A stretch of 24,664 nucleotides of DNA from a virus. The notes beneath the pieces were generated by a model. That model saw only the letters and a program-made list of their open reading frames with translations. It ran no database searches and was not told the origin of the DNA. The stretch covers positions 1 through 24,664 of IMG/VR virus record IMGVR_UViG_3300003881_000052. One strand, 5' to 3'. The number at the start of each line of letters is the position of its first letter. The first letter of the stretch is position 1. This document shows, in pieces, positions 1 through 22,665 of this stretch. The translations under genes were made by a program, and so were the position numbers.

Positions 1-1176
1 GTGAATCTTCGGCAGCGACTGCGCATATTACTGGATTCTCGCCGTAAGACGTTTAGCCCCCCTAAACAGCCTCTATCTAAGGCAATTGTTCAAGGCTATG
101 ACCGCGCCACAGGCAGATACATTATTGGCCAAGGCGGCAGTGTTAAAGTCATGCCGTCTCTGAGCACTGGTGCGGTGGCTGTAGGGGGCGGTGTTAATGG
201 TGGAGCGTTAGGTTTTGATACGATGCCTCATGCTCCACGGATTGCTGAGCCAGTACTTGTCACCGCACCGGTACAGGCAGAACCTTTGGCAGCTATCACC
301 TATATTGCCGATAAATTTGTAAACGGGAAACACCAGATTTGGGCCATTGGGGCGGAGAGCCCTAAGTTAATTGTTGAGTTTGACTCAGAAATCTTGGGCA
401 TATCTAACGCGTTAAGCTTTGGCGTGTTTGGGGCTATTGCAACGAACCAAAGGACACAGTTTGCGAATAGGGTTAGGTTTCATAACCTGAAAGGTCAAGT
501 CCTAGGGGTGACGGCTGCTAAAGGTTCTACATTTATTGTTCAGCGAGGTTGGGCAAGTCTTGGCATACCAGACGATGAGGGGGACGGTGAAACCGTGCAG
601 TCCTACGAAAGAACAGGCGGATTAGCTAGGACAATTACTAACCCTGACCCTGCTGTTAGTCAAAGCCAATTTATTACGCCGTCTCTGAGTTACGACAATA
701 AACTTTCTATTTATGATGTCAGCGCTAGCCCCGGTAATTTTCCGATTATTCGACTAGCCGTAGCTGAGCATGATTACCAGGGCGCCATAGCCGCTGTCTC
801 AAACTCTACCAATCTCACTATTAACGGCGAACGTTTTGCCCCAACGACAGGTGTCTTTTATTGGAATGAGAATGGAAGCCCAACGAAAATCACTACAGGA
901 GTATTCCCCCCTAACCGTACCGGATTCGGGTTTGCGGTTGCCTCTAACTGGCACTTAAAATTCCCCCACCTATACGCTACAACTGACGTGTTATCCAACA
1001 GCAATGCAGGCATACAATCAATTACGTTTGAGAAGTATTTAATAGATTTGACGGCAGAATCACTAACCCTCCTGGGTACTGTCACAACCGATGTCTACGG
1101 TGTCAATGACGCGGATATGCAAATCAGGCAAGCTGTTCTTAACTACAATTTATTTGAGCAACTGCCAGTAACTTAG
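1..1176 (+). CDS. Hypothetical phage virion-like protein (beta-rich)
   Basis: This 391-aa frame begins with GTG at the first base of the window, so the start may be real or the gene may extend upstream. The basic N-terminus followed by a short beta-rich segment (residues 30-65, YDRATGRYIIGQGGSVKVM, then AVAVGGGV) looks like the small beta-barrel segments common in phage tail proteins. The rest is rich in Ser, Thr, Asn and Gly with alternating hydrophobics, as expected for an extended beta structure, and has no membrane segment or enzyme motif I recognise. It is on the + strand and its 3' end overlaps the 3' end of the convergent GH10-like gene by 27 bp. A tail-fibre or other surface role is inferred only from composition and position. 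The product is unknown. Confidence 0.55.
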   Translation: MNLRQRLRILLDSRRKTFSPPKQPLSKAIVQGYDRATGRYIIGQGGSVKVMPSLSTGAVAVGGGVNGGALGFDTMPHAPRIAEPVLVTAPVQAEPLAAITYIADKFVNGKHQIWAIGAESPKLIVEFDSEILGISNALSFGVFGAIATNQRTQFANRVRFHNLKGQVLGVTAAKGSTFIVQRGWASLGIPDDEGDGETVQSYERTGGLARTITNPDPAVSQSQFITPSLSYDNKLSIYDVSASPGNFPIIRLAVAEHDYQGAIAAVSNSTNLTINGERFAPTTGVFYWNENGSPTKITTGVFPPNRTGFGFAVASNWHLKFPHLYATTDVLSNSNAGIQSITFEKYLIDLTAESLTLLGTVTTDVYGVNDADMQIRQAVLNYNLFEQLPVT

Positions 1177-1923
1177 CCGCTGTACCCCTTGCTCTCTTCC
1201 TACTCGTTCATATCGCTTGATAATGGCAGTGGCAGAGTTCTCTTGACCTGGACTGTGAAGGCATTCTACTTCAGACAGATGGACAACTAGGCCTAACCCA
1301 TGAATATCTGCGATCGCGTTTTCCAGCTTGGGCGCTGGCAGCGGTTCAAATAGTTTTGAGAATCCCCAATCGACAACACCAGGAACTTTCTCTGTTATGT
1401 CGGCTCTGCATTGGATGCCAACGCCATCGATCAACCCTTCTTTGCTCAATTTCTCGGTTAGACAGGTGACGTTCTCCCAGTGAGGCTTAGAATTTACAGC
1501 GTATTCATTTAACCACAACTGGGCATTGGGGAATAAATTCCGCGCCATGGCAAACACTTTTAGCTGCCAATCAGAGCCCCACCGACGCATATTCCAACCT
1601 GAACACTCATTGCAAATGTCCCACGAGTGTATGAGCTTACGGTACTGATCGGTCCTATTGACAAGGTAAGTTCGCAAGTCTTCGACCCTATCGACCCTGG
1701 GCGCATCGCGCTTATCAACCAAGGGGTGCCCATGGAGCTTGTACCCCTGAGCATATAGATGTTTCACCTTACTGACGAGGTCTTGAGATACGCCACTCCG
1801 TTGCCTCGAGCGAAAGATAGGCAGCGTTAACCAGTTTGCCTCAGGCGGTTTCACCAGGCCCCGAGGGTTAAATTTGTAGCCGATTTCCATGATTAATTCA
1901 GTGACAAAGGTTCCTCGTACCAT
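1150..1923 (-). CDS. GH10-like glycoside hydrolase of the tail module
   Basis: The 257-aa protein carries the landmarks of a family 10 glycoside hydrolase (xylanase-like) TIM barrel in the right order: a KLHGHPLV strand near residues 62-69, WDICNE with the presumed acid/base Glu106, a LWLNEYA strand near 136-142, LIDGVGIQ near 164-171, and HLSEVE with the presumed nucleophile Glu218. Both catalytic glutamates are therefore present. It is shorter than typical GH10 domains (about 300 aa or more), so it is a minimal or divergent barrel. There is no signal peptide. As the last gene of the tail arm after the hub and a small virion protein, it is most likely a virion-borne enzyme acting on host envelope or sheath polysaccharide; the substrate is unknown. 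The start is uncertain: ATG at 1890, two bases after the upstream stop, gives MEIGYKFNP and is an equally good choice. Confidence 0.7.
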   Translation of the reverse strand: MVRGTFVTELIMEIGYKFNPRGLVKPPEANWLTLPIFRSRQRSGVSQDLVSKVKHLYAQGYKLHGHPLVDKRDAPRVDRVEDLRTYLVNRTDQYRKLIHSWDICNECSGWNMRRWGSDWQLKVFAMARNLFPNAQLWLNEYAVNSKPHWENVTCLTEKLSKEGLIDGVGIQCRADITEKVPGVVDWGFSKLFEPLPAPKLENAIADIHGLGLVVHLSEVECLHSPGQENSATAIIKRYERVGREQGVQRLSYWQLLK

Positions 1924-2258: not shown

Positions 2259-4034
2259 TTATCTCTCCAGATTCAAATACTGTTCTTGAGTCAACCCTAG
2301 ATATTCCGATTGCGATAGATCTAGGTAATCGGATACACCCCCAACGCACGCATTCTCTCCAAAGCCAATCCATTGCTCCTGAGTAAGCCCTAAATACTCA
2401 GCTTGAGACATATCCAGGTAACATATCTGCCCCCCTGACATTGCAGAACCCAAGGTAGTTGTGACCTTGATGCCAATCCTGACCCTAGAAACTAGCTGCT
2501 CAACAGGTCGAGTGAATGAAGTACCCACCTTAATGCCAACCCGAACCCTAGCGCCTGGCTGCGGAATTTGTGTTGGAGGTGTCTCAATGGTGCCATCAGT
2601 AACTTCGATGGGTTCACTCGGCACTGTTCCTGGTGACACTGGCTGGCCGCCGGCGGTGACAGTTGCCCCCTGCAGTCTGTTGAGTAGTGCGCCATTGGTA
2701 CTGACAATTGCTTGCTCGGGGTCAACCCCCCAAGCGGTGCCATTTAGGGCAAAGTCGTAGATGCTACCATCAAGCCTGAGAACCCTCACAACGCCATAGG
2801 GCCGATAACTAGAGAAGAATTCAGCCCGCAATGGGAAACCCATCTCAGCAGATTGATGTCTCGCCTTGGCGACCCGATGCCACACCGACCCATAGGAGTA
2901 GCACTGATTAGCCTGTGTATCTCCGATGGTTACAGTTTTACGGCCATAACGACCCGAACCTTGCTTATCAGATAAGTAGGGGACCGTGTAATTCTCTTGT
3001 CGTGGTTGCCATCCGCTCGGTACCCCTCCAAATTTAACAGTGGCATTCGCTGATTGAGTTTCACTGCTAATTCTCGCGGGCATCCGCTCGGTGCCTGGCG
3101 GTTTAGTTTGGCCACTGCTGCTGTCTTGAGTGGTGGTTTTTACGCTAGCGGGTGCGATCGCACGGTTTAATACTCCTTTCCTGGTATCGTCCGTTGTCGC
3201 AGCAAGAATGTCGGATAAAATCCCTTGCTGAAATCTAGAATCACGACAAGCAGGAACGCGGCTTTGGGTAATTATTTTCCAGTCACTAGGAGACTGAGCT
3301 TCGTATTTAGTTGTAGATTGCTCACCGGAAACAGTAGATAGCAGCTGACTATTGGTAAACAGTGCATTGACGATTGACCAGTCCAGCCCGCCGAGCCCGC
3401 CGAGAACAGACCCTAAAGGCTCCATGACTTCTCTGTCCTCTCGGATCAGTTGCTGCTGCTCGTCATAGGTGTAGTCAATGGTCTCTGTGACATCCACCAG
3501 CTGATCTAAGTTGAGGCTGTAAAACGCTGTGTCGTCATTACTAAGCAACCAGTCTACATAGTTGCTAAGGGCAGTTATTACAGGTACTGACGCTGTTTTA
3601 GTGACCCGCTCCAGCATGGCATTATCATCTTGGCCATACTGTCGAACAGTCACCACGGTGGATGATGGCACCTGATTAAACACGGTATAGCCGTAGACGC
3701 CCCGATACACCAAAAACCCCATCTGGGTTTCTGTTTGGGTGTCGGTTACACGGCTGTTATCAAAATCAATATCCTCAGATTGCCTAAACGTCGAGATAAC
3801 GCCCTGGCCACCGCCGCTAAAAATAATAGACGTACTATTAGGTGCCCGCTGGACAATAGGCGTAGGAGCAATTAGTGATTTATTGCCACGGTCCTCAGTA
3901 AATATCTCACCGGTATTATCGGCCCGGTCAAATACTTCGCGATAACTGCCAGACACTACGGCTTCATCCGCTGGCGGTTGACCAACGATCACAGGTCGAA
4001 TATCTTCAGCCAGTTCAGCTTCACTGATCACCAA
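2259..4034 (-). CDS. Tail-tip hub protein, C-terminal part (after in-frame UGA)
   Basis: The 591-aa open frame begins with TTG (4034) or GTG (4031), but it is in the same reading frame as the 202-aa gene just upstream and is separated from it only by one UGA at 4086-4088 and 17 sense codons. Together the two parts make an 811-residue protein, a usual size for a siphophage baseplate or tail-tip hub lying after the distal tail protein. The middle is an Asp/Thr/Gln-rich virion protein without enzyme motifs. Near residues 497-525 are two copies of an RVR(V/I)GIKV strand, and the C-terminus carries octad repeats of the type YLxL(S/T)QxE at about 539-558 and 570-589. The hub call rests on gene order, size and composition. 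Whether the downstream part is made by UGA readthrough, by re-initiation, or not at all is open. Confidence 0.65.
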   Translation of the reverse strand: MVISEAELAEDIRPVIVGQPPADEAVVSGSYREVFDRADNTGEIFTEDRGNKSLIAPTPIVQRAPNSTSIIFSGGGQGVISTFRQSEDIDFDNSRVTDTQTETQMGFLVYRGVYGYTVFNQVPSSTVVTVRQYGQDDNAMLERVTKTASVPVITALSNYVDWLLSNDDTAFYSLNLDQLVDVTETIDYTYDEQQQLIREDREVMEPLGSVLGGLGGLDWSIVNALFTNSQLLSTVSGEQSTTKYEAQSPSDWKIITQSRVPACRDSRFQQGILSDILAATTDDTRKGVLNRAIAPASVKTTTQDSSSGQTKPPGTERMPARISSETQSANATVKFGGVPSGWQPRQENYTVPYLSDKQGSGRYGRKTVTIGDTQANQCYSYGSVWHRVAKARHQSAEMGFPLRAEFFSSYRPYGVVRVLRLDGSIYDFALNGTAWGVDPEQAIVSTNGALLNRLQGATVTAGGQPVSPGTVPSEPIEVTDGTIETPPTQIPQPGARVRVGIKVGTSFTRPVEQLVSRVRIGIKVTTTLGSAMSGGQICYLDMSQAEYLGLTQEQWIGFGENACVGGVSDYLDLSQSEYLGLTQEQYLNLER

Positions 4035-4085
4035 TATCGGATCGCTGTCGGTAGCTCGATGGATTTGGATTGACTCATTGCGATC

Positions 4086-4088
4086 TCA
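4086..4088 (-). other. In-frame UGA inside the hub reading frame
   Basis: The minus-strand codons here read TTG TTT GCG TGG TGA GAT CGC AAT GAG. Removing the TGA joins the 202-aa and 591-aa frames without any shift. The 17 codons between the stop and the next possible start (DRNESIQIHRATDSDPI and so on) look like ordinary protein. The context UGG UGA GAU is not the well-known UGA-CUA readthrough context. A nonsense change (for example TGG to TGA) or a sequencing error is at least as likely as programmed readthrough. Confidence 0.75.
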
Positions 4089-4694
4089 CCACGCAAACAA
4101 CCCCATACTGGCCAGCATTTTACCGGCTGACTCCAGGTAGCTCCCTGATAGCTGGGGAACATCCCTGAATCTGATTGTGGTCCCCGCTTGGTTATAGGTG
4201 GGAACGCCACAGCCAGCCAAAGCAAGCAATCGATTGACAACAGTAATGGCGTTTGTGGTGCTACCAGGGTTGACTAGACTGAGTAGCTCAGACTCATCGG
4301 TCGGACCAGCAAATAACCGAGCACCAATCAGGCAGGCTACCTCTAGAGTTTGCTGAGGTGGACGCCCTTCTTCTGGGTTCCCTTCATCGGGGGCGCTGCC
4401 AATAATCCGCAATGACCCACGGGGATGGAGTTCATAGGCTCCATTGCGCCACACCTCAAAAGTGACCGCCGTACCAATAGTGAATAACTCTGGGTTGTCC
4501 CAGTTGTTTATGGGCTGGCCGCCGCGAATCTGGTCTATCTCTATCTGACCGTCAAAGGTAACTAATCCTGACTCATCAACGAAGCTGTCCTGGCCAGTGA
4601 ACGCAAAAAACTGGAGTGAATAATCTACTCCGCCGATAGTCAGTCGGGGTGGGTTGGTGGCAGCAGCTGGCAGGCGTATGTTTACTCGGGTCAT
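4086..4694 (-). CDS. Tail-tip hub protein, N-terminal part
   Basis: This 202-aa protein starts with MTRVNIRLPAAATNPPRLTI and is built mostly of beta strands (GGVDYSLQFFAFTG, VTFDGQIEID, FTIGTAVTFEVWRNG, GSLRIIGS). That matches the N-terminal hub domain of siphophage tail-tip proteins, which describes an inner ring around the tail tube. The ATG overlaps the stop of the distal tail gene (frame 4691-5194) by 4 bp, the usual coupled arrangement. The frame ends at a UGA after SMGLFAW, and the same frame continues as the 591-aa ORF. As it stands it would be an orphan N-terminal domain, so I regard both as one gene. Confidence 0.65.
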   Translation of the reverse strand: MTRVNIRLPAAATNPPRLTIGGVDYSLQFFAFTGQDSFVDESGLVTFDGQIEIDQIRGGQPINNWDNPELFTIGTAVTFEVWRNGAYELHPRGSLRIIGSAPDEGNPEEGRPPQQTLEVACLIGARLFAGPTDESELLSLVNPGSTTNAITVVNRLLALAGCGVPTYNQAGTTIRFRDVPQLSGSYLESAGKMLASMGLFAW

Positions 4695-5194
4695 ACGCTG
4701 ATGCCAGGGATTTCGGTAAACGTGCCATTGATCAAATATCGATCCTGGTCTGTTCCTTTCTCTGCAAACTCGACAGGGTTGGCGTCTAGGATGAAATTCA
4801 CCGCATATTGGGCAAAACTCATGGTGAATGTGTCAATAGTGAAGGTTGTTCCAGCGATAGCTTGCTTTTGAGGAATAGCTTCAAATGGGATTGTTCTCAT
4901 CCTGTCTTCAAGGATCAAATGAGTGCGGGCTCCAGTGCTAAGCAAAGTTTCTAAAATTTGAAGCCTAGCTTTATCGTCAGCAAATACGACAGCTCTGATA
5001 GGCCACTCATACCGTCGGTTATAGGATGGGCCCGTCTCTATGTGTCTGCCCGCTCTGTTGATGCGCTGGATGCTGCGACCAATCCGGTTGATAACGGGCT
5101 TGCCATTAGAAAACAGTCGTAGCTGAATGTCTGAGACCACACTACTAGGGTCTTTAACCACATAGTGGGGGTCTGATAGTAACGGACTAACCAC
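4691..5194 (-). CDS. Distal tail protein-like
   Basis: The 167-aa protein follows the tape measure and precedes the hub, which is the place of the distal tail (Dit) or minor tail protein of siphophages. It has no membrane segment. The middle (RRYEWPIRAVVFADDKARLQ, then THLILEDRMRTIPFEAIPQ) has the strand pattern of a protein that caps a tail tube, and the C-terminal half (FTIDTFTMSFAQY) is also beta-rich. It is coupled to both neighbours: its ATG overlaps the end of the preceding frame by 8 bp and its stop overlaps the hub ATG by 4 bp. The function is inferred mainly from gene order. Confidence 0.55.
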   Translation of the reverse strand: MVSPLLSDPHYVVKDPSSVVSDIQLRLFSNGKPVINRIGRSIQRINRAGRHIETGPSYNRRYEWPIRAVVFADDKARLQILETLLSTGARTHLILEDRMRTIPFEAIPQKQAIAGTTFTIDTFTMSFAQYAVNFILDANPVEFAEKGTDQDRYLINGTFTEIPGISV

Positions 5195-5603
5195 GGGCCC
5201 CCCTTGCTACCGCTCCGGTGATAGCTGCTATCTGTTCGTATGGGTCGGTTGTGTCCCCTACATTGAAGTTATTCTCAATGGTGTCGGGGAATGATTGCTC
5301 AATAGCGGCTTTTACCGACCTAATCTCTTCGGTCAGCGTTGAAATCTGAGAGTCTGCCAACTGTAGTTCTTGTTGAGCATCAAAAAACGAATTAATACCA
5401 CCTAGTCCGACAGCGTCCAGTACACCACCAGCAAATGGATTGTCTTCGTTTTGGCTAGCAAACCTGAATGCCTCATCGACGTCAAAGCCGCCACGGCTAA
5501 ACCGCTGGGCCTGGTTGATGGCTGATTGCAGCTGATTAGCATCGTCATCGTCTAGAACCCCCAGCACGGCGGGCTGTCCCAAGGTTTCCTTCCAGTTGGT
5601 CAA
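5187..5603 (-). CDS. Probable C-terminal part of the tape measure protein, out of frame
   Basis: The 138-aa frame opens at a TTG (5603) three codons after an in-frame TAG, and overlaps the tape measure 3' end by 59 bp in the +1 frame. Its content (SRGGFDVDEAFRFASQ, NPFAGGVLDAVGLGGI, then helices ending in DPYEQIAAITGAVARGARG) looks like the C-terminal tail of a tape measure. The last 11 residues of the tape measure frame, in contrast, are a low-complexity TARRAGGSRR-type end. If the tape measure moved by +1 at CTT GGG A (5577-5583), the sequence would run smoothly from LEGNL into GQPAVLGV and total about 1208 residues. It may instead be an independent small gene with a TTG start. I favour the split-gene reading. 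Confidence 0.55.
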   Translation of the reverse strand: MTNWKETLGQPAVLGVLDDDDANQLQSAINQAQRFSRGGFDVDEAFRFASQNEDNPFAGGVLDAVGLGGINSFFDAQQELQLADSQISTLTEEIRSVKAAIEQSFPDTIENNFNVGDTTDPYEQIAAITGAVARGARG

Positions 5604-8600
5604 GGTTGCCTAGAGCATCCGCTTGCGATACGTCCTCTAAACCACTTAGCGCCGACACAATGCTTTCAGCTGCATTTGCACGGTCTTTAGTGGCATCCGC
5701 CAAGGCTTTTTCAGTTTTCAACTGCTCATCAGCCAAATCTTTTTGGGTTTTCAGAGACTTCTCAATTGCCTGTTGCCTTCGCTCTGCCGTGGCCTGTTGT
5801 TCTGCAATTTGCTCGTCAGTGTCGAGCTGGTCAAGCTGAAGCGCCAAAATATCTTTCTGAGTTCTGGCCTGCTCCTCCAGTGAGTCTGTTTGCTCCTCCC
5901 TGAGTTTTACTATTTCTTCCAGCCCGCTCAGCTCTTCGTCAGTTGTGCTATCGTCCAGCTGCGCTCGTTCTAACGCTATTTTGGCTTCTGCTTCAGCAAT
6001 GCGTCCTAGCCGTGATTCCCTGTCAGCATCCAGTGATACCTGCTGTTGTTGAATCTGGAGCGACTGACGCCGAGCGCTAAATTCGGCAGCAATGGATTGT
6101 CGCTGATTGATGAGAATGCGATCGCGCAATTCCTCCACTGCCACGCTGTCTTCAATAGCAGTAGCTTCAGCTAATTTTGCCTCTAAGGTCTGACGGGAAA
6201 GTGATAGACGCGATTGTTCTAAATCTGCCTGAGCCCCGATGAGACTGGCTTGGTCCTGCAATGCAGTCAGCGCCAACCCAGACTGAATATTAATCTGCTC
6301 AGACTGTAGATCGTTTAGCCGCTGTTGAGCATCTAACTGGCTTTCGGCTGCCTTAACTGCCTCCTCTGCTTTGTCCTTGGCGGCAGCAGCGGCAGCGTCT
6401 TGAGCCTCAATCTCTTTTTCAATAGCTTCTAGGGTTAGATCGGCGATACCCTCATTTGCCTTCCTAATCTGATCGGCGGCATTTTTTTCGGAAATGACCT
6501 TACGACTGGCAAAGTCTTCTATTTTGGCTATTTCATCTTCTCGTAACGCAATACGTTCTTGGATGCCTTCAATTTCGATGCTTGAAATTTGAGCATCGGC
6601 CTCGTCTTCTGTGATATTTCCTGCCGCTTGGTTTTGACGCACCCCAGCAATACGGTTGGACTGGGCCACATCTATCGCCGAGATAGCATCCAGGTTAGCT
6701 TGCTTAAATTTTTCAGCGGCTTCCTGGTCGGCCTTGATTCTGGCTGCGGCAGCAGCCTTGGCAGCACGGTCAGCGTCAGCGACAATCTGGTCGCTAGCCT
6801 CTTTATTGTCCTGGACTTTCTGGCTCAGTTCCTCTCTAGACAGTCGGGTGCGCTGAGAGTTATCTAGGTCAACGCCAATCCCAGCAGCCCCTTCTGACAC
6901 AGATTCGTCAAAATTGACAGATCCTTTGATCTCAACAGGCTTAGAATTGCTTAGTCGTTGAATTATGTCCTCAGCAACGCCAAGCAGCCGCAGCGATGGC
7001 ACCAGTCGTTCTGCGACTTTAGTAAATGCGTCCGCGATCGCAAGGATTTCATCAATGCTATTTGCGGCTGCCGATCCTACTACCAGGATGGTGTCAGCGA
7101 TGCTCTCTAGCTCACTAGCAAAGCGTTCAATGTTTTCTGGTTTAGATAGTATCCGAGTGATTTCATCTAACAGTTCGGCGGTGACTTCAGCCCCAGCAGC
7201 TAGAACGCTGCTCAATGCTTCGCCCAGTCGCTCTGCTAGTTCTGGGTTGTCAGCCAAAGCATCCCTTAGCCGTTCCCCAGCCTCAGCCAATGGGTCTAGC
7301 GAGCTAACATCTACTTCTTGAAAAATAGCGGCAAATGTATCAGAGAAGGCGGTTTCTAGTGGCTCTAGTGACTTACCCAAAGAGCTTTGAAAATCAAATA
7401 TTGCAGTTTGCAATCCTGCAATAGCCTGTTGTGCGGCAGGTGCTGCGCCCTCAATTTCTTTGAACCCTTTAGTAATTGCTGGAATAAACTCAGCGGCAGT
7501 AAGATTGCCACTAGCCACCAGATCATTTAATTCAGCAGTGGTAATACCAAGCCCATCAGCGGCCGCACTAAAAGCTACTGGTAACTGCTCGCCTAATTGT
7601 TGACGCAGTTCTTCCATCGAGACTACGCCTTTGCTCGCGATCTGCTGCAAAGCGTTGAACGCCAGCCCCGTAGAGGTGGAGTCTTTGCCAAAAATAGCCA
7701 GCACCCGACTGGTTTCAGCAAACAACTCATTGACCTGTTGCTGAGGGATACCAGCGGCAGCGGCGGCAGCGGTTATTCCCGCGTATTCATTTTGTAGGAC
7801 CTGAAATGATTGGCCAGTAGTTTCTGCTGTTTGCCTAAGAAAGTCGATACTCTCAGCGGCGGCCTGTTGGGAGCCGAGAACAATCCCTAGGGCATTTTCA
7901 GTGGCCCTGAGTGAGGCATTGGCTTGGACACTGGCCGCGACAAACTCGGTGACTTTGCTAGTTAGTGCCCCAAATGCGTTGACTAGCTGATCAATCAATA
8001 CAGCGGCAGCACCAGCAGAGAGCCCGGCCAGAATAGAGTTGAACGAACCAGTATCTTTGCTGGCTTTTTGAGCGGCGTCACCAGTTTTGCGGTATTCCCT
8101 CTGTAAGTCCTTAAGCGCTTCTTCGGCATTGGCCCCGGATAAATTCTTGATGGTTTCGTTGATGCGATTTATCTGCTCACGCGCCTGGCGTGTATCCGCA
8201 TCGATGACTATCTTTTTGGCGTCTATGCCATCAATCTTGGAGTCGAGGGCGGCTAACTCTGAGTCAATGTTTTCGACTTTTGGAGTTAGCCTGATGCGGC
8301 GAAGAGTAAGCCTTTCAATTTGAGCATCTAGCTTAATGAGCTTCTCACTAGCATCATCGTCAGCCGAGATTTTGATAGCCTCATCATTCAAGGCTTTTAG
8401 CTGACTATCGATGAGTTTTATCTGGGCCGTCGCATTTCTAGAATCAGCCTCAACAATTAGTTTTCTGTCTTGCAGTTTTTTGATATCGGCATCTAGTTTG
8501 GCAATATTTGACTGAGCATTAGAGATATTGACAGTGATTTCATTACGAGATTCTCTGAGCCTTGCGATCGCAGACTCAATGGTCAACACAGATCTCTGAG

Positions 8601-15184: not shown

Positions 15185-16493
15185 CTCACTACATGAGACC
15201 CAGAAACAGGTATTTTGGGCTCCTTACCGCTATCGAGTTGTGGTGTGCGGGCGAAGGTGGGGCAAGTCGAGGCTTAGCCTGACCACAGGCGTCATGGCAG
15301 CAATGGGGCAGCTTCCTAACTATGCCGCTGGGGATATGTCATCACGGCTTACATTTCCCTACGACCCCGCATCACCGCCCACCGTGGTGTTTGCAATGCC
15401 CACACTGAAGCAGTGCAAAAAGATTTTCTGGAAACCATTGGTTAATTTGCTGGCGGGTCAACCCTTTGTCGAGAGCATTAACCGGGCAGAACACACCATT
15501 AAGCTGGTTGGAGACTTGCCAGAGATTGTGTGTGTTGGCCTGAACGATGGTGACGGCGATCGCGTTCGTGGCTTTCGTATTGCTGCGCTGTTGGCGGATG
15601 AATGGCAGGATGTGAAACCCATGATTTGGGATGAGGTGCTGCAACCCGCTATGGCAGATACACCAGGCAGTATCGCGCTGTTTGCTGGCACCCCAAAGGG
15701 CAAGGTCAACCACCTTTATAAATTTGATCTGAAGTCTCAGAAGTTTGACGACTGGGGTAGCTTTCGGTTTGAGACTGCAGATAATCCGTTTGTGCCTAAA
15801 GAGGAAATTGAGCGGGCAGAAGCGACTCAAGACCCCAGAACATTTAGGCAAGAATTTAAGGCCAGTTATGAGGATTTCCCTGGCCAGGTGTTTGATCATC
15901 TAGAAGATAAACATCTCAGAGGTGACGTACCCACCGAATTTAAGCGAGTAGTGATGGGTGTTGACTGGGGTGATGTCAATCCAGCTCTGTTTGTCGGTGG
16001 CAAGGACAACAGTGGTGTGTGGTGGGCCTTAGATACCTGGTATTCATCTACTGGGGTAAATATTCTCGATACTGAATTTTTAGAGCAAGGAAAACGGCTT
16101 AAGAAAAAGCACGGAGTACAGGCTGCGTGGTGTGGTCATGATCGGCCAGCTAGCATTCAAAAGTGGCAGACAGAACTAGGTATTCCTTGCAAGAGTTGGC
16201 AAGATGCCAAGTCAAAAAATGGTAAAGCCCCTGGGTTGAACGAGAGAAACAGCCGAGTGAATTCGTGCATTTATCATGGCAGATTTAGGATTGCAGGTCA
16301 TTTAGTAGAGTTCAAGGATAAGATGGCTTCGTATCACAGAGATTCTGATAGTGCAGGCAACATTTTGGATGCGATCGCTAAAGGACAAGATGACCACGAG
16401 GTTGATGCTTGCACTATGGCGATCGGCAGCGAAGAATTCAAACAACCTCTCCAATTCAACCTCGACACACTTGCCTCGACCTCACCTTATTAA
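15090..16493 (+). CDS. terL: Terminase large subunit
   Basis: The 467-aa packaging motor and nuclease has a Walker A motif GRRWGKSR (residues 54-61), a Walker B with catalytic Glu in ALLADEWQD (Asp170, Glu171) and coupling motif AGTPKGK (199-205). The RNase H-like nuclease domain shows VMGVDWGDVNP (Asp292), WCGHDRPAS (Asp351) and HEVDACTMAI (Asp439), so the three acidic residues appear intact. The length is normal for the family. The chosen ATG (15090) lies inside the 3' end of the small subunit gene; this 95-bp overlap is unusual but the frame is clearly used, since its N-terminal Pro/Lys/Leu-rich linker runs smoothly into the ATPase. Confidence 0.95.
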   Translation: MTLAPLPLPQLKPLKPLQNLQGKSGKQPSKLSSLHETQKQVFWAPYRYRVVVCGRRWGKSRLSLTTGVMAAMGQLPNYAAGDMSSRLTFPYDPASPPTVVFAMPTLKQCKKIFWKPLVNLLAGQPFVESINRAEHTIKLVGDLPEIVCVGLNDGDGDRVRGFRIAALLADEWQDVKPMIWDEVLQPAMADTPGSIALFAGTPKGKVNHLYKFDLKSQKFDDWGSFRFETADNPFVPKEEIERAEATQDPRTFRQEFKASYEDFPGQVFDHLEDKHLRGDVPTEFKRVVMGVDWGDVNPALFVGGKDNSGVWWALDTWYSSTGVNILDTEFLEQGKRLKKKHGVQAAWCGHDRPASIQKWQTELGIPCKSWQDAKSKNGKAPGLNERNSRVNSCIYHGRFRIAGHLVEFKDKMASYHRDSDSAGNILDAIAKGQDDHEVDACTMAIGSEEFKQPLQFNLDTLASTSPY

Positions 16494-16495
16494 CT

Positions 16496-17863
16496 ATGTA
16501 CTCTAACAATCCCCCCGTTAAGTCCGGGCTGCTGAATCGGCTGTGGCGGTTGCTGACAGGTGCTCGTCAGACCAAGCAAATGATTGGCACCCAACGTAGT
16601 GCGGTTGTGAGTACATATCGATGGCCAACCTGGGACCAAGAGTTAGTTGAATACCCTATACGAGAACAAGAGCAAGCTAAGCTCCTGATCTCTGCTATTT
16701 ATGGCGAAAATCGAGAAAAGATTTTTGATGACGTGCTGCGGTATATCGAAAGTGATGTATTTAGCAGTAGTGACGGCGATGATCGCGGATTTACAATCTC
16801 TGAGACTTTAGATGATGGCGAAACACCCATTGACCCAGATGTTTACGCGATCGCAACCGAGTTAATTCGTCGGAAGAATGGTGATCATTTTGTCATTGGC
16901 GGGACTCGGTTTCAACGAGCAGCTAGAGAGGCGGCGGCCTATGGCGATAGCTTTTGGCAGCTAGCAATTGAACGCGATGGTGACAGTTATGCCATTACAG
17001 ATACGCTCAAAATGCCTTGCTGGGAAATGTTTAGAGTAGAGTCCGACACGGGGGAACTACTCAGGTACGAGCAACGACGAAGACTGTTTGAAGTAAGCCC
17101 ACAGTTTCAGTTTCCCCCCATCAAAATCATTCACTTTCGCTACCGGCAGCGTGGAATATATGGGCAATCATTGTTTAGTGCATGCCTGACCTATCGAGCA
17201 GACCATGACCGAGCACGGCGAAACCTGGCCAAAGTGACCAACGACACGGGTAGTAATCCCTATATTTTCAAGATGCCTGAGGGAACTACGCGAGAGCAAA
17301 AGCTACAGTTCAAAGAGGCTATTGACCAAGCGTTTAACGACGGTACAGTCACCGCCTTATATCCTGACTATGGTGTTGAGGTAGATCGGCTTGGCGCAGA
17401 TGTCCCTAACTTTGAGCCACTGATTGAAGACAAGAAGACGATCCGTCACAGTCTGGTCCCGGCAGGTTTCCCCGTATGGCTTATCCCTGGCATGGACAAC
17501 ACAGGAGCAAGAGACATTAGTGGCGGTCCTGAGCGGGCCTATGCCAGAATGATCAACGATTTTCGAGCGATGCTGACCACAGGCATCCGGCAAGCGATAG
17601 ACATTGAACTGTTCCTCAAGCTTGGCCCTGACGCCTATCAGGAAAAGGTCATTGAAAAAGGCTACACGGTTACATGGCCCAAAATTACTGTGCTGACCAA
17701 TCAGGGAATGCCTCAAGATATTCCTGAGACCGACGCTGATGGCATTCAAGAGTTAGAAAGTGATACCAATCGTCTGCGTTACACCGACCAAGGCAGCATA
17801 GACACAGCTTGGCTATACCGAGTGATAGACAACGCTATGAGTAGGAACGGCCATGGCAGATAA
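16496..17863 (+). CDS. Portal protein
   Basis: The 455-aa protein, taking the ATG at 16496 two bases after the terminase stop, forms the portal vertex ring. Portal-like features include REAAAYGDSFWQLAIERDGD (about 142-161), RYRQRGIYGQSLFSACL with a polar crown helix after it, and YRADHDRARRNLAKV before NPYIFKMPEG. The frame is open further upstream to 16409, but that part would lie inside the terminase gene and is not portal-like. It overlaps the next gene by 11 bp. Order (after TerL, before a MuF-like gene) and length agree with a siphovirus portal. Confidence 0.88.
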   Translation: MYSNNPPVKSGLLNRLWRLLTGARQTKQMIGTQRSAVVSTYRWPTWDQELVEYPIREQEQAKLLISAIYGENREKIFDDVLRYIESDVFSSSDGDDRGFTISETLDDGETPIDPDVYAIATELIRRKNGDHFVIGGTRFQRAAREAAAYGDSFWQLAIERDGDSYAITDTLKMPCWEMFRVESDTGELLRYEQRRRLFEVSPQFQFPPIKIIHFRYRQRGIYGQSLFSACLTYRADHDRARRNLAKVTNDTGSNPYIFKMPEGTTREQKLQFKEAIDQAFNDGTVTALYPDYGVEVDRLGADVPNFEPLIEDKKTIRHSLVPAGFPVWLIPGMDNTGARDISGGPERAYARMINDFRAMLTTGIRQAIDIELFLKLGPDAYQEKVIEKGYTVTWPKITVLTNQGMPQDIPETDADGIQELESDTNRLRYTDQGSIDTAWLYRVIDNAMSRNGHGR

Positions 17864-19780: not shown

Positions 19781-20500
19781 ATGGAAAATCTGGCCACCAC
19801 ATTAGGGCGTGTTTTTTCAGAAGCGATCGCGCCCATGGGCCCACCAAACGAAGAACAACTCGTGCTCATCAATCAAAATCGACCACTTGGCCGAGAGCCC
19901 TACACAGCTGACGAGATCGTTTCAGTACCTATCATTGCCAGTAACAACCTTGTGAACTGGTCTAATGGTCGCTGGAACCGTGATGCATTGATCAAGATGG
20001 CTGAGACGTATCCTGGTCAGCCCTTTGCCGTAGACCACCCCATGTACACGGTGAAAGATACCGTAGGTTTTATCTATGACGCTCAGCTAATTGAGTCAAA
20101 TGCTGCTCCTGTGGATATCCTGGAAGCGGCTGGAGAACTGGCCAGCAATACAGCCGTGGTACAGTCTGAAGGATTTATTCAGATGGTTTGCTACGCGGCG
20201 ATCTCAGCAGGCCACCCAATCTTAGACAGCATTGATATGGGTCGAGTTAACAATGCGTCCACGGGGTGCATTACAGACGGAACAAGTCTTTGCCCGTTAG
20301 ATGGCACTGAGTTTGGTTCTATGAGTCGTTACCGATGTGCAGAAGGGCATTATCATCCGTTCTATGCGTGGTGGTATGACGTGGACGACGACGACTTAAT
20401 TGCTCCGTATGCCATTAAGACTGGTGTTATCAGCAGCGTTGAGCTAAGCCTGGTGTTGATGGGTAGCCTGCCAGCCGCCAGCATTCCTAGGGGAGTTTAG
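19781..20500 (+). CDS. Prohead protease-like or scaffold-associated protein
   Basis: The 239-aa protein lies between the MuF-like protein and the major capsid protein, where a prohead protease is expected. It has QPFAVDHPMYTVKDTVGFIYDA (His86) in the place of a protease histidine, RVNNASTGCITD (Ser160) as a possible nucleophile, and a C-terminal GVISSVELSLVLMG segment like that of many prohead proteases. It also has an unusual cluster of Cys and His between 163 and 192 (TGCITDG, LCPLDG, YRCAEGHYH) that could bind zinc. Without an alignment I cannot say which residues are catalytic. The ATG at 19781 is preceded by a long opposite-strand unit. Confidence 0.5.
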   Translation: MENLATTLGRVFSEAIAPMGPPNEEQLVLINQNRPLGREPYTADEIVSVPIIASNNLVNWSNGRWNRDALIKMAETYPGQPFAVDHPMYTVKDTVGFIYDAQLIESNAAPVDILEAAGELASNTAVVQSEGFIQMVCYAAISAGHPILDSIDMGRVNNASTGCITDGTSLCPLDGTEFGSMSRYRCAEGHYHPFYAWWYDVDDDDLIAPYAIKTGVISSVELSLVLMGSLPAASIPRGV

Positions 20501-20757
20501 TCTTGCCCTAAGATTCCCTTACCCCATGGTCTAGGAATAGGGGCCAACAGAACCAGAGGATCTTCACCTAAATCCAGGAACTTCAACAATGCAGGTGTGG
20601 ACTCTAACGGTAGACTACTGCGACCACACTCTATTTTCCATAGTGTTGTTCTACTCAGTCCAGCTTCGACAGCAACTGCCTTTTGCGTCACGCCTAAGTC
20701 TTCTCTTCTATTTTTTAGGTTTCGGCCAATAATTCTGCGAGCTACTCTGTCGTTCAT
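20497..20757 (-). CDS. XRE-family transcriptional regulator
   Basis: The 86-aa protein has a Cro/C1-type helix-turn-helix at about residues 12-60: RNLKNRREDLGVTQKAVAVEAGLSRTTLWKIE style, with the canonical TQ(x)AVA and GLSRTTLWKIE helices. The end (DPLVLLAPIPRPWGKG) is Pro-rich and may help dimerise. It is on the minus strand inside the head operon, overlapping the convergent end of the protease-like gene by 4 bp and divergent from the capsid gene across a 90-bp gap. It could regulate the capsid promoter or itself; its target is unknown. Confidence 0.85.
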   Translation of the reverse strand: MNDRVARRIIGRNLKNRREDLGVTQKAVAVEAGLSRTTLWKIECGRSSLPLESTPALLKFLDLGEDPLVLLAPIPRPWGKGILGQD

Positions 20758-20847: not shown

Positions 20848-22665
20848 ATGGTAAAAAGTACAAAGGTAATTGTTCAAGAGGAGTCGGCTACCGTTTCTGA
20901 AGCCGAACACCTTAAGCAACAAATGAAGCCAAAACCCAAAGGGTTTAAGGCTGAAATTCAGGCATTAAGCCCTACTGAAGCTGAAGAAGAGCCAGTAAAA
21001 GAGGAAAAGCCTGATCCTGTCCTGGCCGCGATCGCTCAGCTGAATGAAAAAGTTGACCAGCTATCTGCCGATAAAGAAGCTTCGGATAATCGTGTGACCG
21101 AACTGGAGAGTCAGCTTGAGGACCAACGCACCGAAGCAGAAGGCGCGATCGCTGAACTACAAACTCAGCATCAGCAAGAGTTAGAGGCTGTTAATGCTGA
21201 CAAACAAGCCGCTGATGAACGCGTCACTCGTCTAGAAGGCCTGTTTAAACTCACGGGTAACCAGCACGCAACCACTGAAGCAGAAGCAACGAGTATGGAC
21301 AGTGCGCCTAATGTGAATACACTGCTTGCGTCAGAGCGATCGCCTAAGGGAATGTATCGCGAGATCCAGTCGATTTTGGACAGTGCCCAGATCGCTCAAA
21401 AATATACAGGTGCTGGTGCGTTAATCACAACGCGTGACAATCGGGAGCTAAATGCATTCATCCGTCATGCTCGCAAAGACTCTAAAACCTGGCATCAATT
21501 GCTCATGGATGTGGAATCTCATGCTAAGGCAAATGGCCTATTGCGTGGACCCTCTAGCAAGGTAACAGACCGAAATGCCGCTACTGTTGGCGCTGACATT
21601 GATGGTGGCTTCCTGGATACGCTGTCGGTCATTATGCGGACCAACAACCGCCCGCAGTATATTTTCCGTAACTTTGCCAATACTCGAATTGATTTTGCTC
21701 AGGGGCTTGGTGATACTGTGAAGGTTCCTCGTGCAGCTTATCAAACAGGCCCATCTAATCCTGATGATCGTCTGTTGTCTGGCGCTGGGTCATTTGCCAA
21801 TATCGATAGCACCAATCAGCGGCTACAAACTGGCACGGTTAGTGCTGTTATCAATGAATGGGGTCTCGGCAAAAATTCAGAACACCCGCCCGTCGGTATC
21901 CCTAGCTTTGTTCAGGCATACTCCATGATTGATCTCATGGGGTTGCTTGAGCGCAACCTGGGGGAGGATTACTACCGCTGGGAAGACATGAAGGTTCGTA
22001 GCCTATGGGCTCCTACTAGTCGTGTTGTTTATAACGATGGTGATGACGTAACAACGACCACAGCCAATGCTGATGGTAGCGTGACGCTACAGTTTCTAAA
22101 TAACCTTTATGGCTACATGCGTGGTTTGAAGATCCCAACGTATCAAGATGGTTGTTATGGCATTGTCTTGATCTCTAAGGTCTGCTCTCAGTTCCGTAAT
22201 GAAATGATTGCCGATGGCATCTGGCAAGCGCCGTCTCGTGAAGCACTGGAAGCCTTGTCTAATAGCCTGTCTATTTCTGTGGGTATGGATGTTGGTCCTA
22301 CAGATTTAGCAGCAGCCTACCAAGGTAAGCATGGCAACTTCCATATCTTTGATACTAATGCTTATGGAACTGGCACTGTTGGCACGGCTGGTGCTGATGG
22401 CGAAGGTGTACAGACTGAAACGGTAGCGGCTGGTGCTGCTACAACTCGCAGCAATTACGCCTTTGGTGCTGACACGATTGGCCGTGGCATTGGCACTGAG
22501 ATGGAGATCCGCCGAGACACCAATGACAACTTTGGTCGAGTTGGTCGATATATCTGGCGATCTGAAGAAGGCTTTGTTGCGATGGATGTTGATCCAACCG
22601 GATATTCCGACACATCGGAGGTTCCTCAACAGCTTCGTGTTTTAGACGTTCGTACGATTGGTTAA
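20848..22665 (+). CDS. Major capsid protein with N-terminal coiled-coil extension
   Basis: The 605-aa protein has a capsid-like C-terminal region from about residue 240 (DIDGGFLDTLSVIMRTNNRP, FANTRIDFAQGLGDTVKVPRAA, LRVLDVRTIG at the end) that resembles N4-gp56-type coat proteins. Before it, residues 56-138 form a strong heptad coiled coil (DQLSADKEASDNRVTELE, EGAIAELQTQHQQELEAV), like the cleavable delta or scaffold domain of many capsid proteins. A protease-like gene sits just upstream, so cleavage near the coil end (about 140-160) is plausible. It starts with ATG directly after the divergent repressor gap. It is the largest + strand gene and fits the position of the main coat. Confidence 0.85.
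   Translation: MVKSTKVIVQEESATVSEAEHLKQQMKPKPKGFKAEIQALSPTEAEEEPVKEEKPDPVLAAIAQLNEKVDQLSADKEASDNRVTELESQLEDQRTEAEGAIAELQTQHQQELEAVNADKQAADERVTRLEGLFKLTGNQHATTEAEATSMDSAPNVNTLLASERSPKGMYREIQSILDSAQIAQKYTGAGALITTRDNRELNAFIRHARKDSKTWHQLLMDVESHAKANGLLRGPSSKVTDRNAATVGADIDGGFLDTLSVIMRTNNRPQYIFRNFANTRIDFAQGLGDTVKVPRAAYQTGPSNPDDRLLSGAGSFANIDSTNQRLQTGTVSAVINEWGLGKNSEHPPVGIPSFVQAYSMIDLMGLLERNLGEDYYRWEDMKVRSLWAPTSRVVYNDGDDVTTTTANADGSVTLQFLNNLYGYMRGLKIPTYQDGCYGIVLISKVCSQFRNEMIADGIWQAPSREALEALSNSLSISVGMDVGPTDLAAAYQGKHGNFHIFDTNAYGTGTVGTAGADGEGVQTETVAAGAATTRSNYAFGADTIGRGIGTEMEIRRDTNDNFGRVGRYIWRSEEGFVAMDVDPTGYSDTSEVPQQLRVLDVRTIG

What the first reader, a model, noticed from the sequence alone, without database searches (positions are those of the whole stretch)
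4031..4694. Single in-frame UGA splits the tail-tip hub gene
The 202-aa and 591-aa frames are in the same frame, separated by UGA and 17 sense codons that look like protein. Neither part has a normal gene layout alone: the first ends within a fold and the second starts only with TTG/GTG. The joined 811 residues match a normal hub size. It could be UGA readthrough, a nonsense mutation in a decaying prophage, a change of code, or a sequencing error.
Basis: partly seen in the sequence, partly recalled or inferred. Interest (0 to 1): 0.6.

Follow-up and report, generated by a model that had tools for sequence, protein, structure and literature searches.

The report
Premature stop in phage tail-hub gene
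One phage contig carries a single stop codon in the middle of its tail-hub gene, where all the relatives found read straight through, so this is most likely a one-off nonsense change or a sequence error rather than a new way of reading genes.

Summary
On the minus strand a 202-codon frame (4694-4086) ends in UGA at 4088-4086. The same frame stays open for 608 more codons, to a TAA at 2259. Read through, it gives an 811-residue gp27-like tail/baseplate hub (VIA-align Z 20.8 over model residues 12-672). The UGA falls at the end of a predicted strand (199-203) of a beta-hairpin whose partner strand (209-213) is encoded after it. Relatives carry both halves in one uninterrupted frame: 57 of 57 hub loci in viral contigs have no stop within the match, and annotated cyanophages have single 732- to 759-aa genes. 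The aligned position is a varying sense residue in 37 of 37 distinct relatives. Nothing marks it as recoding: no conserved stop, no special RNA fold, no other in-frame UGA in 6,918 codons of 28 other ORFs, six of which end in UGA. Best reading: a one-off nonsense codon in a single contig, either a true mutation or a consensus error. I cannot separate these without reads, and no near relative was found.

The parts
4086..4694 (-). N-terminal part of the tail-hub gene (202 codons), cut by the UGA
   Evidence: matches hubs of Synechococcus phages S-CRES1-3 and S-CBS2
4086..4088 (-). in-frame UGA
   Evidence: aligned with sense residues in 37 of 37 distinct relatives
4035..4085 (-). 17 sense codons between the UGA and the first TTG of the downstream frame; encode the partner strand of the hairpin
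   Evidence: sequence-only test not significant
4056..4100 (-). predicted beta-hairpin, residues 199-213, interrupted by the UGA at residue 203
   Evidence: strands 199-203 and 209-213
2259..4034 (-). C-terminal part of the hub gene (591 codons from TTG, no Shine-Dalgarno-like run seen just upstream)
2670..2927 (-). residues 590-675: C-terminal portion of the gp27-like hub fold, encoded after the UGA
   Evidence: sequence match to relatives at 562-701
4691..5194 (-). gene directly upstream of the hub (167 aa), probable distal tail protein by position; ends in TGA
   Evidence: same place as S-CRES1 gp79, with a very weak match (22 residues, E 0.44)
5545..8814 (-). tape measure protein gene, open over its whole length
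   Evidence: PF20155 E 1.1e-27, PHROG tape-measure families

Best explanation
This is one tail/baseplate hub gene of a cyanophage-like tailed phage, of the gp27/gp44/VgrG-type fold, with a single premature UGA at codon 203. In this record the codon is a one-off: either a true nonsense change in the sequenced phage or prophage, or a wrong base in the consensus of a metagenomic contig. If it is true, normal translation gives a 202-residue fragment ending within a beta-hairpin of the hub's first half. The second half, which completes the fold, would be made only by rare misreading of UGA or by weak restart at TTG/GTG, so particles would be defective or hub-poor. Shown: the codon, the open frame, the homology of both halves to single genes, the predicted fold. 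Inferred: the loss of function and the origin of the codon. I split it roughly evenly between true mutation and sequence error.
For: Both halves match, in order, single uninterrupted hub genes: S-CRES3 732 aa (18-140 E 3e-10 and 600-695 E 8e-4), S-CRES1 and S-CBS2, and the C part a 628-aa hub of a viral contig (E 6e-8). In 57 of 57 relatives' hub loci (39,375 codons read) no stop falls within the match; 47 frames are complete (625-1150 aa), 10 run off the contig. A profile of 7 relatives, window excluded, matches window residues 18-686 as one domain across the UGA: 67.3 bits joined, 57.8 for the C part alone, N part alone not reported. hhalign, also window-excluded, gives probability 98.6 over 14-669 in the same register. 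The aligned position is Q 30, C 3, T 3, V 1, the same in four MAFFT modes. AlphaFold2 puts it in a hairpin of a gp27-like hub fold. UGA is an ordinary stop elsewhere (6 of 28 ORFs). The region has no special RNA fold (z +0.6 to +1.3).
Against: All relatives are distant (17-23% identical), so they cannot exclude a stop kept in a narrow group of close relatives. No near relative was found, and the tools say near records may be left out. The profile of all 37 relatives matched the N and C parts as two separate domains, not across the UGA. The two hubs did not match the N part alone significantly (best E 0.54). The linker residues do not beat shuffles. Other genes that could be compared look intact, which does not fit a decaying prophage.
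Confidence: 0.86

Rival explanations
1. Programmed or functionally tolerated UGA readthrough: a 202-aa terminated product plus a few percent of full hub, which is needed in only a few copies per virion.
For: UGA is the stop most often read through, by tRNA-Trp among others (PMC5289835, passages); phage Q-beta makes its A1 protein by UGA readthrough at about 1/15 (PMC8067240, passages). The frame after the UGA is open and homologous to hubs. Low hub copy number is recalled, not tested.
Against: No stop at this place in 57 of 57 relatives. The short product ends in the middle of a hairpin. No structured element around the codon, no Rfam match in the window, no tRNA in the window. The +4 base is G, not the A or C that ties to leakiness in bacteria (there UGA-G is tied to tRNA-Cys misreading, in yeast).
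Confidence: 0.06
2. A real split gene: two polypeptides, the second restarted at TTG/GTG, that associate to form the hub.
For: A 16-codon frame starting at the ATG just after the UGA ends in a UGA that overlaps the GTG of the second frame (GTGA), an arrangement seen in translational coupling (sequence; the coupling motif is recalled).
Against: The break is inside a hairpin, and the 17 codons in between would be lost from both products. There is no Shine-Dalgarno-like run before the TTG. No relative is split.
Confidence: 0.04
3. UGA is read as an amino acid throughout this phage (code 4-like).
For: One in-frame UGA in a conserved gene; such phages have been predicted (PMC11210395, passages).
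Against: 0 in-frame UGA in 6,918 codons of 28 other ORFs against 106 UGG; 6 of the 28 end in UGA. No tRNA in the window.
Confidence: 0.01
4. Selenocysteine at the UGA.
For: 3 of 37 relatives have Cys at the aligned place.
Against: The position is mostly Gln and otherwise varies (30 Q, 3 T, 1 V). No stable stem-loop after the UGA (z +1.0 for 60 nt, +1.3 for 42 nt); no Rfam match. It is a structural protein with no redox role that I know of.
Confidence: 0.01

Closest known systems
gp27-like tail/baseplate hub (phage Mu gp44, MuSo2 43-kDa tail protein, phage Milano, cyanophage A-1(L) baseplate initiator, VgrG)
   Same: Fold of the read-through product: Z 20.8 (Milano 8fqc_C1, 309 residues, 3.8 A), 18.8 (Mu gp44 1wru), 18.1 (A-1(L) 8kea_A), all spanning about residues 7-673
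   Different: Frame broken by UGA at codon 203; long low-confidence middle (about 217-590) and C-terminal tail (676-811); sequence identity only about 7-12% in the best rows
Tail hubs of Synechococcus phages S-CRES1-3 and S-CBS2
   Same: Sequence homology in both halves; same gene order tape measure - small gene - small gene - hub
   Different: Single uninterrupted genes of 732-759 aa; 21-24% identical to the window hub (S-CRES2 not in that alignment)
Q-beta A1 UGA readthrough
   Same: A leaky UGA in a phage structural gene with a homologous extension would work alike
   Different: In Q-beta the short product is the complete coat protein (PMC8067240, passages); here it ends inside a hairpin, and no relative keeps the stop

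Membership tests
gp27-like tail/baseplate hub | hub fold built from N- and C-terminal parts | tested here: met
   for the read-through product; mean pLDDT of the whole model only 51.5, confident parts roughly 11-130, 186-215 and 610-670
gp27-like tail/baseplate hub | gene downstream of the tape measure, after small tail genes | tested here: met
   against 14, 27, 28
gp27-like tail/baseplate hub | single open frame | tested here: not met
   UGA at 4088-4086; met in 57 of 57 relatives. So I file it as a broken or wrongly read member
gp27-like tail/baseplate hub | trimer at the tail tip | not testable with these tools
   needs particles
programmed stop-codon readthrough | stop conserved between relatives | tested here: not met
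   0 of 57, all distant; close relatives not available
programmed stop-codon readthrough | stimulating downstream RNA structure | tested here: not met
   fold z-scores +0.6 to +1.3
programmed stop-codon readthrough | measured extended product | not testable with these tools
   needs proteomics or a reporter
UGA-reassigned phage (code 4) | in-frame UGA in many genes and UGA rarely used as stop | tested here: not met
   0 in 6,918 codons of 28 other ORFs; 6 of 28 ORFs end in UGA
UGA-reassigned phage (code 4) | suppressor tRNA | tested here: inconclusive
   none in 24,664 bases, but the record is probably a fragment
bacterial selenoprotein | SECIS stem-loop just after the UGA | tested here: not met
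decaying prophage | several broken genes | tested here: inconclusive
   terminase, portal, 19781 gene and capsid gene match over most of their length; the 11172, 17853 and 22669 genes match in part only; the other genes had no relative to compare

The most novel reading that the evidence does not exclude
The UGA is real and kept in a narrow phage group, and low-level misreading sets the hub supply (a few copies per particle), with the 202-residue fragment as a chaperone or dose control of tail initiation. That would be readthrough control of a tail hub in a double-stranded DNA phage.
Probability: 0.05. Interest if true: 0.55.

Novelty: new member of a known kind. Interest (0 to 1): 0.12.

Why it matters
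Mostly as annotation: automatic callers would list two genes of unknown function where there is one hub gene of a known fold. It also shows how to tell an isolated stop from recoding: relatives, fold, UGA use in the whole record, and comparison with a probable genuine recoding site in the same operon (the chaperone frameshift).

Tried and rejected
Pfam and PHROGs gave no family for either half, nor did plasmids. Scans of viral and genome contigs with the window's own hub, upstream-gene and tape-measure proteins found no relative, nor did a genome-contig scan with the terminase alignment A1. The way in was the terminase alignment in viral contigs, then a hub profile over 10 of the 15 records found, then hub alignments A4 and A5. 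A scan for the DNA around the codon with any bases at the codon found 0 records. Cylindrospermopsis phage Cr-LKS4 shares the capsid gene (47%), but its annotated tail genes are lambda-like (J, K, L, M), so its tail was not used. The sequences of solved structures gave only two chance-level hits; the fold search did the naming.

Considered and rejected: code change, selenocysteine and split gene (see rivals). A promoter or terminator signal at the break: 1 promoter-like site (mean 1.3 in shuffles) and 2 terminator-like sites (mean 1.0), all on the other strand. Papers, search listings only: cyanophage, readthrough and stop codon together gave 3 papers, unrelated by title and abstract start; a five-term search on premature stops in tail fibres gave none; the S-CRES names gave none; Cr-LKS4 gave 2, not read.

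Full report
What is there. On the minus strand, ATG at 4694 opens a 202-codon frame ended by TGA at 4088-4086. Without a shift the frame goes on for 608 codons to TAA at 2259, the first 17 of them before any ATG/GTG/TTG. The record is a 24,664-base virus record, one contig, and the window is all of it. The gene follows a tape measure gene (PF20155) and two small genes, the order seen in Synechococcus phages S-CRES1, S-CRES3 and S-CBS2.

One gene, not two. The 202-residue part matches the start of the S-CRES hubs (best E 3e-5 in the collection). The second part matches the end of the same proteins: against S-CRES3, 18-140 at E 3e-10 and 600-695 at E 8e-4. A hub profile found two more hubs in 2 of 10 viral records searched; the C part matches one of them, a 628-aa frame, at E 6e-8, while the N part alone did not match either significantly. 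Two further scans gave 11 and 46 loci. In all 57 the frame has no stop within the match (30 bases of tolerance at its end); 47 frames are complete, 625 to 1,150 aa, and 10 run off the contig. The 57 are not independent: L028 and L037 are contigs already seen as L026 and L027, and the 50 of 600 aa or more reduce to 37 at 90% identity.

Where the UGA falls. Aligned with the 37, the UGA column holds Q 30, C 3, T 3, V 1, in four MAFFT modes. The window was part of those alignments, so I also used profiles made without it. A profile of 7 relatives aligns window residues 18-686 in one domain through the UGA (67.3 bits; C part alone 57.8; N part alone not reported), and hhalign agrees on the register (probability 98.6, 14-669). 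Against this, a profile of all 37 matched the two parts as separate domains (15-124 and 344-686), and shuffling the 17 linker residues did not lower the scores (129 of 300 and 271 of 300 shuffles as good). The alignment of the linker itself therefore rests on the pattern around it and on structure, not on its own letters.

Structure. AlphaFold2 with 30 rows gave a model with mean pLDDT 51.5; roughly 11-130, 186-215 and 610-670 are confident. Strands 199-203 and 209-213 form a hairpin; the block 201-210 has mean pLDDT 89 and 211-220 has 61. The codon is the last residue of the first strand. In the second look at solved structures the model matches hubs of the gp27 type: phage Milano Z 20.8, Mu gp44 18.8, cyanophage A-1(L) 18.1, T4 gp27 16.7, with first and last aligned residues at about 7-14 and 672-673. 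So the fold needs residues from both sides of the UGA. Foldseek alone gave E 1.7e-7 to 1e-3 for 20 chains, nearly all tail, baseplate or injection-system hubs.

How it most likely works. As written, translation stops at residue 202 and gives half a hub fold. I see no sign of a designed bypass: folds at and after the codon are weaker than the mean of shuffles (z +0.6 to +1.3), no Rfam family, no tRNA, and no stop in relatives. The first TTG of the second frame has no Shine-Dalgarno-like run before it. UGA is a normal stop in this record: of 28 other ORFs that I took as likely genes (a choice by eye), 6 end in TGA and none of their 6,918 codons is TGA. Read as a true codon, it would leave hub only through rare misreading or restart; UGA is the stop most often read through (PMC5289835, passages read). 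Read as a consensus error, nothing is broken. I put these two together at 0.86 and cannot divide them with the data here.

A contrast in the same operon. Upstream of the tape measure gene, the 9108-9602 frame overlaps a startless 130-codon frame (9207-8815) that ends right at the tape measure start. The overlap holds A AAA AAG in the right phase for a -1 shift. This is the known arrangement of tail assembly chaperones G and GT (PMC5009743, passages); that A AAA AAG is a classic slippery site is recalled. A probable true recoding site in this phage thus has its usual hallmark; the UGA has none.

Limits. All relatives in the alignment used for folding are 17-23% identical to the window hub. The search for the same DNA found 0 records, and the tools warn that near records may be left out. 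So a stop kept only among close kin is not excluded; this is the novel case, which I give 0.05.

Noticed in passing
window 8815-9207 and 9108-9602, minus strand: Probable tail assembly chaperone pair with a -1 frameshift: the 9108-9602 frame overlaps a startless 130-codon frame and the overlap holds A AAA AAG in phase; the long frame ends at the tape measure start.
   Followed up: partly
window 12924-14261, plus strand: PI-PLC-C1 domain gene (PF16670, E 1.2e-11) with third-position GC 0.81 against 0.34-0.58 for the other ORFs listed and local GC 0.60; no match in the phage collection. Recent acquisition or a chimeric join.
   Followed up: partly
window 1150-1923, minus strand: Glycosyl hydrolase family 10 domain gene (PF00331, E 1.3e-15) two genes after the hub; possibly a tail-borne sugar-cutting or binding protein.
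   Followed up: no
window 20848-22665 and 16409-17863, plus strand: Capsid (47% identical) and portal (28%) match only Cylindrospermopsis phages Cr-LKS4 and RM-2018a in the phage collection, while the hub matches Synechococcus phages: a mosaic of head and tail modules.
   Followed up: partly
window 20497-20757, minus strand: Small gene that looks helix-turn-helix by eye, next to the capsid gene, as in Cr-LKS4 (g18, 'Cro/C1-type'); homology not tested.
   Followed up: no
window 5187-5603 and 5545-8814, minus strand: The tape measure frame and the next frame overlap by 59 bases, and the second has only a TTG start without a clear ribosome site: start misplaced, or a second irregularity.
   Followed up: no
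window 2259-2450, minus strand: The hub ends with a repeated stretch (YLDxSQxEYLGLTQEQ, twice); another hub (L026 8091-9977) also ends in short repeats (MIGLA).
   Followed up: no
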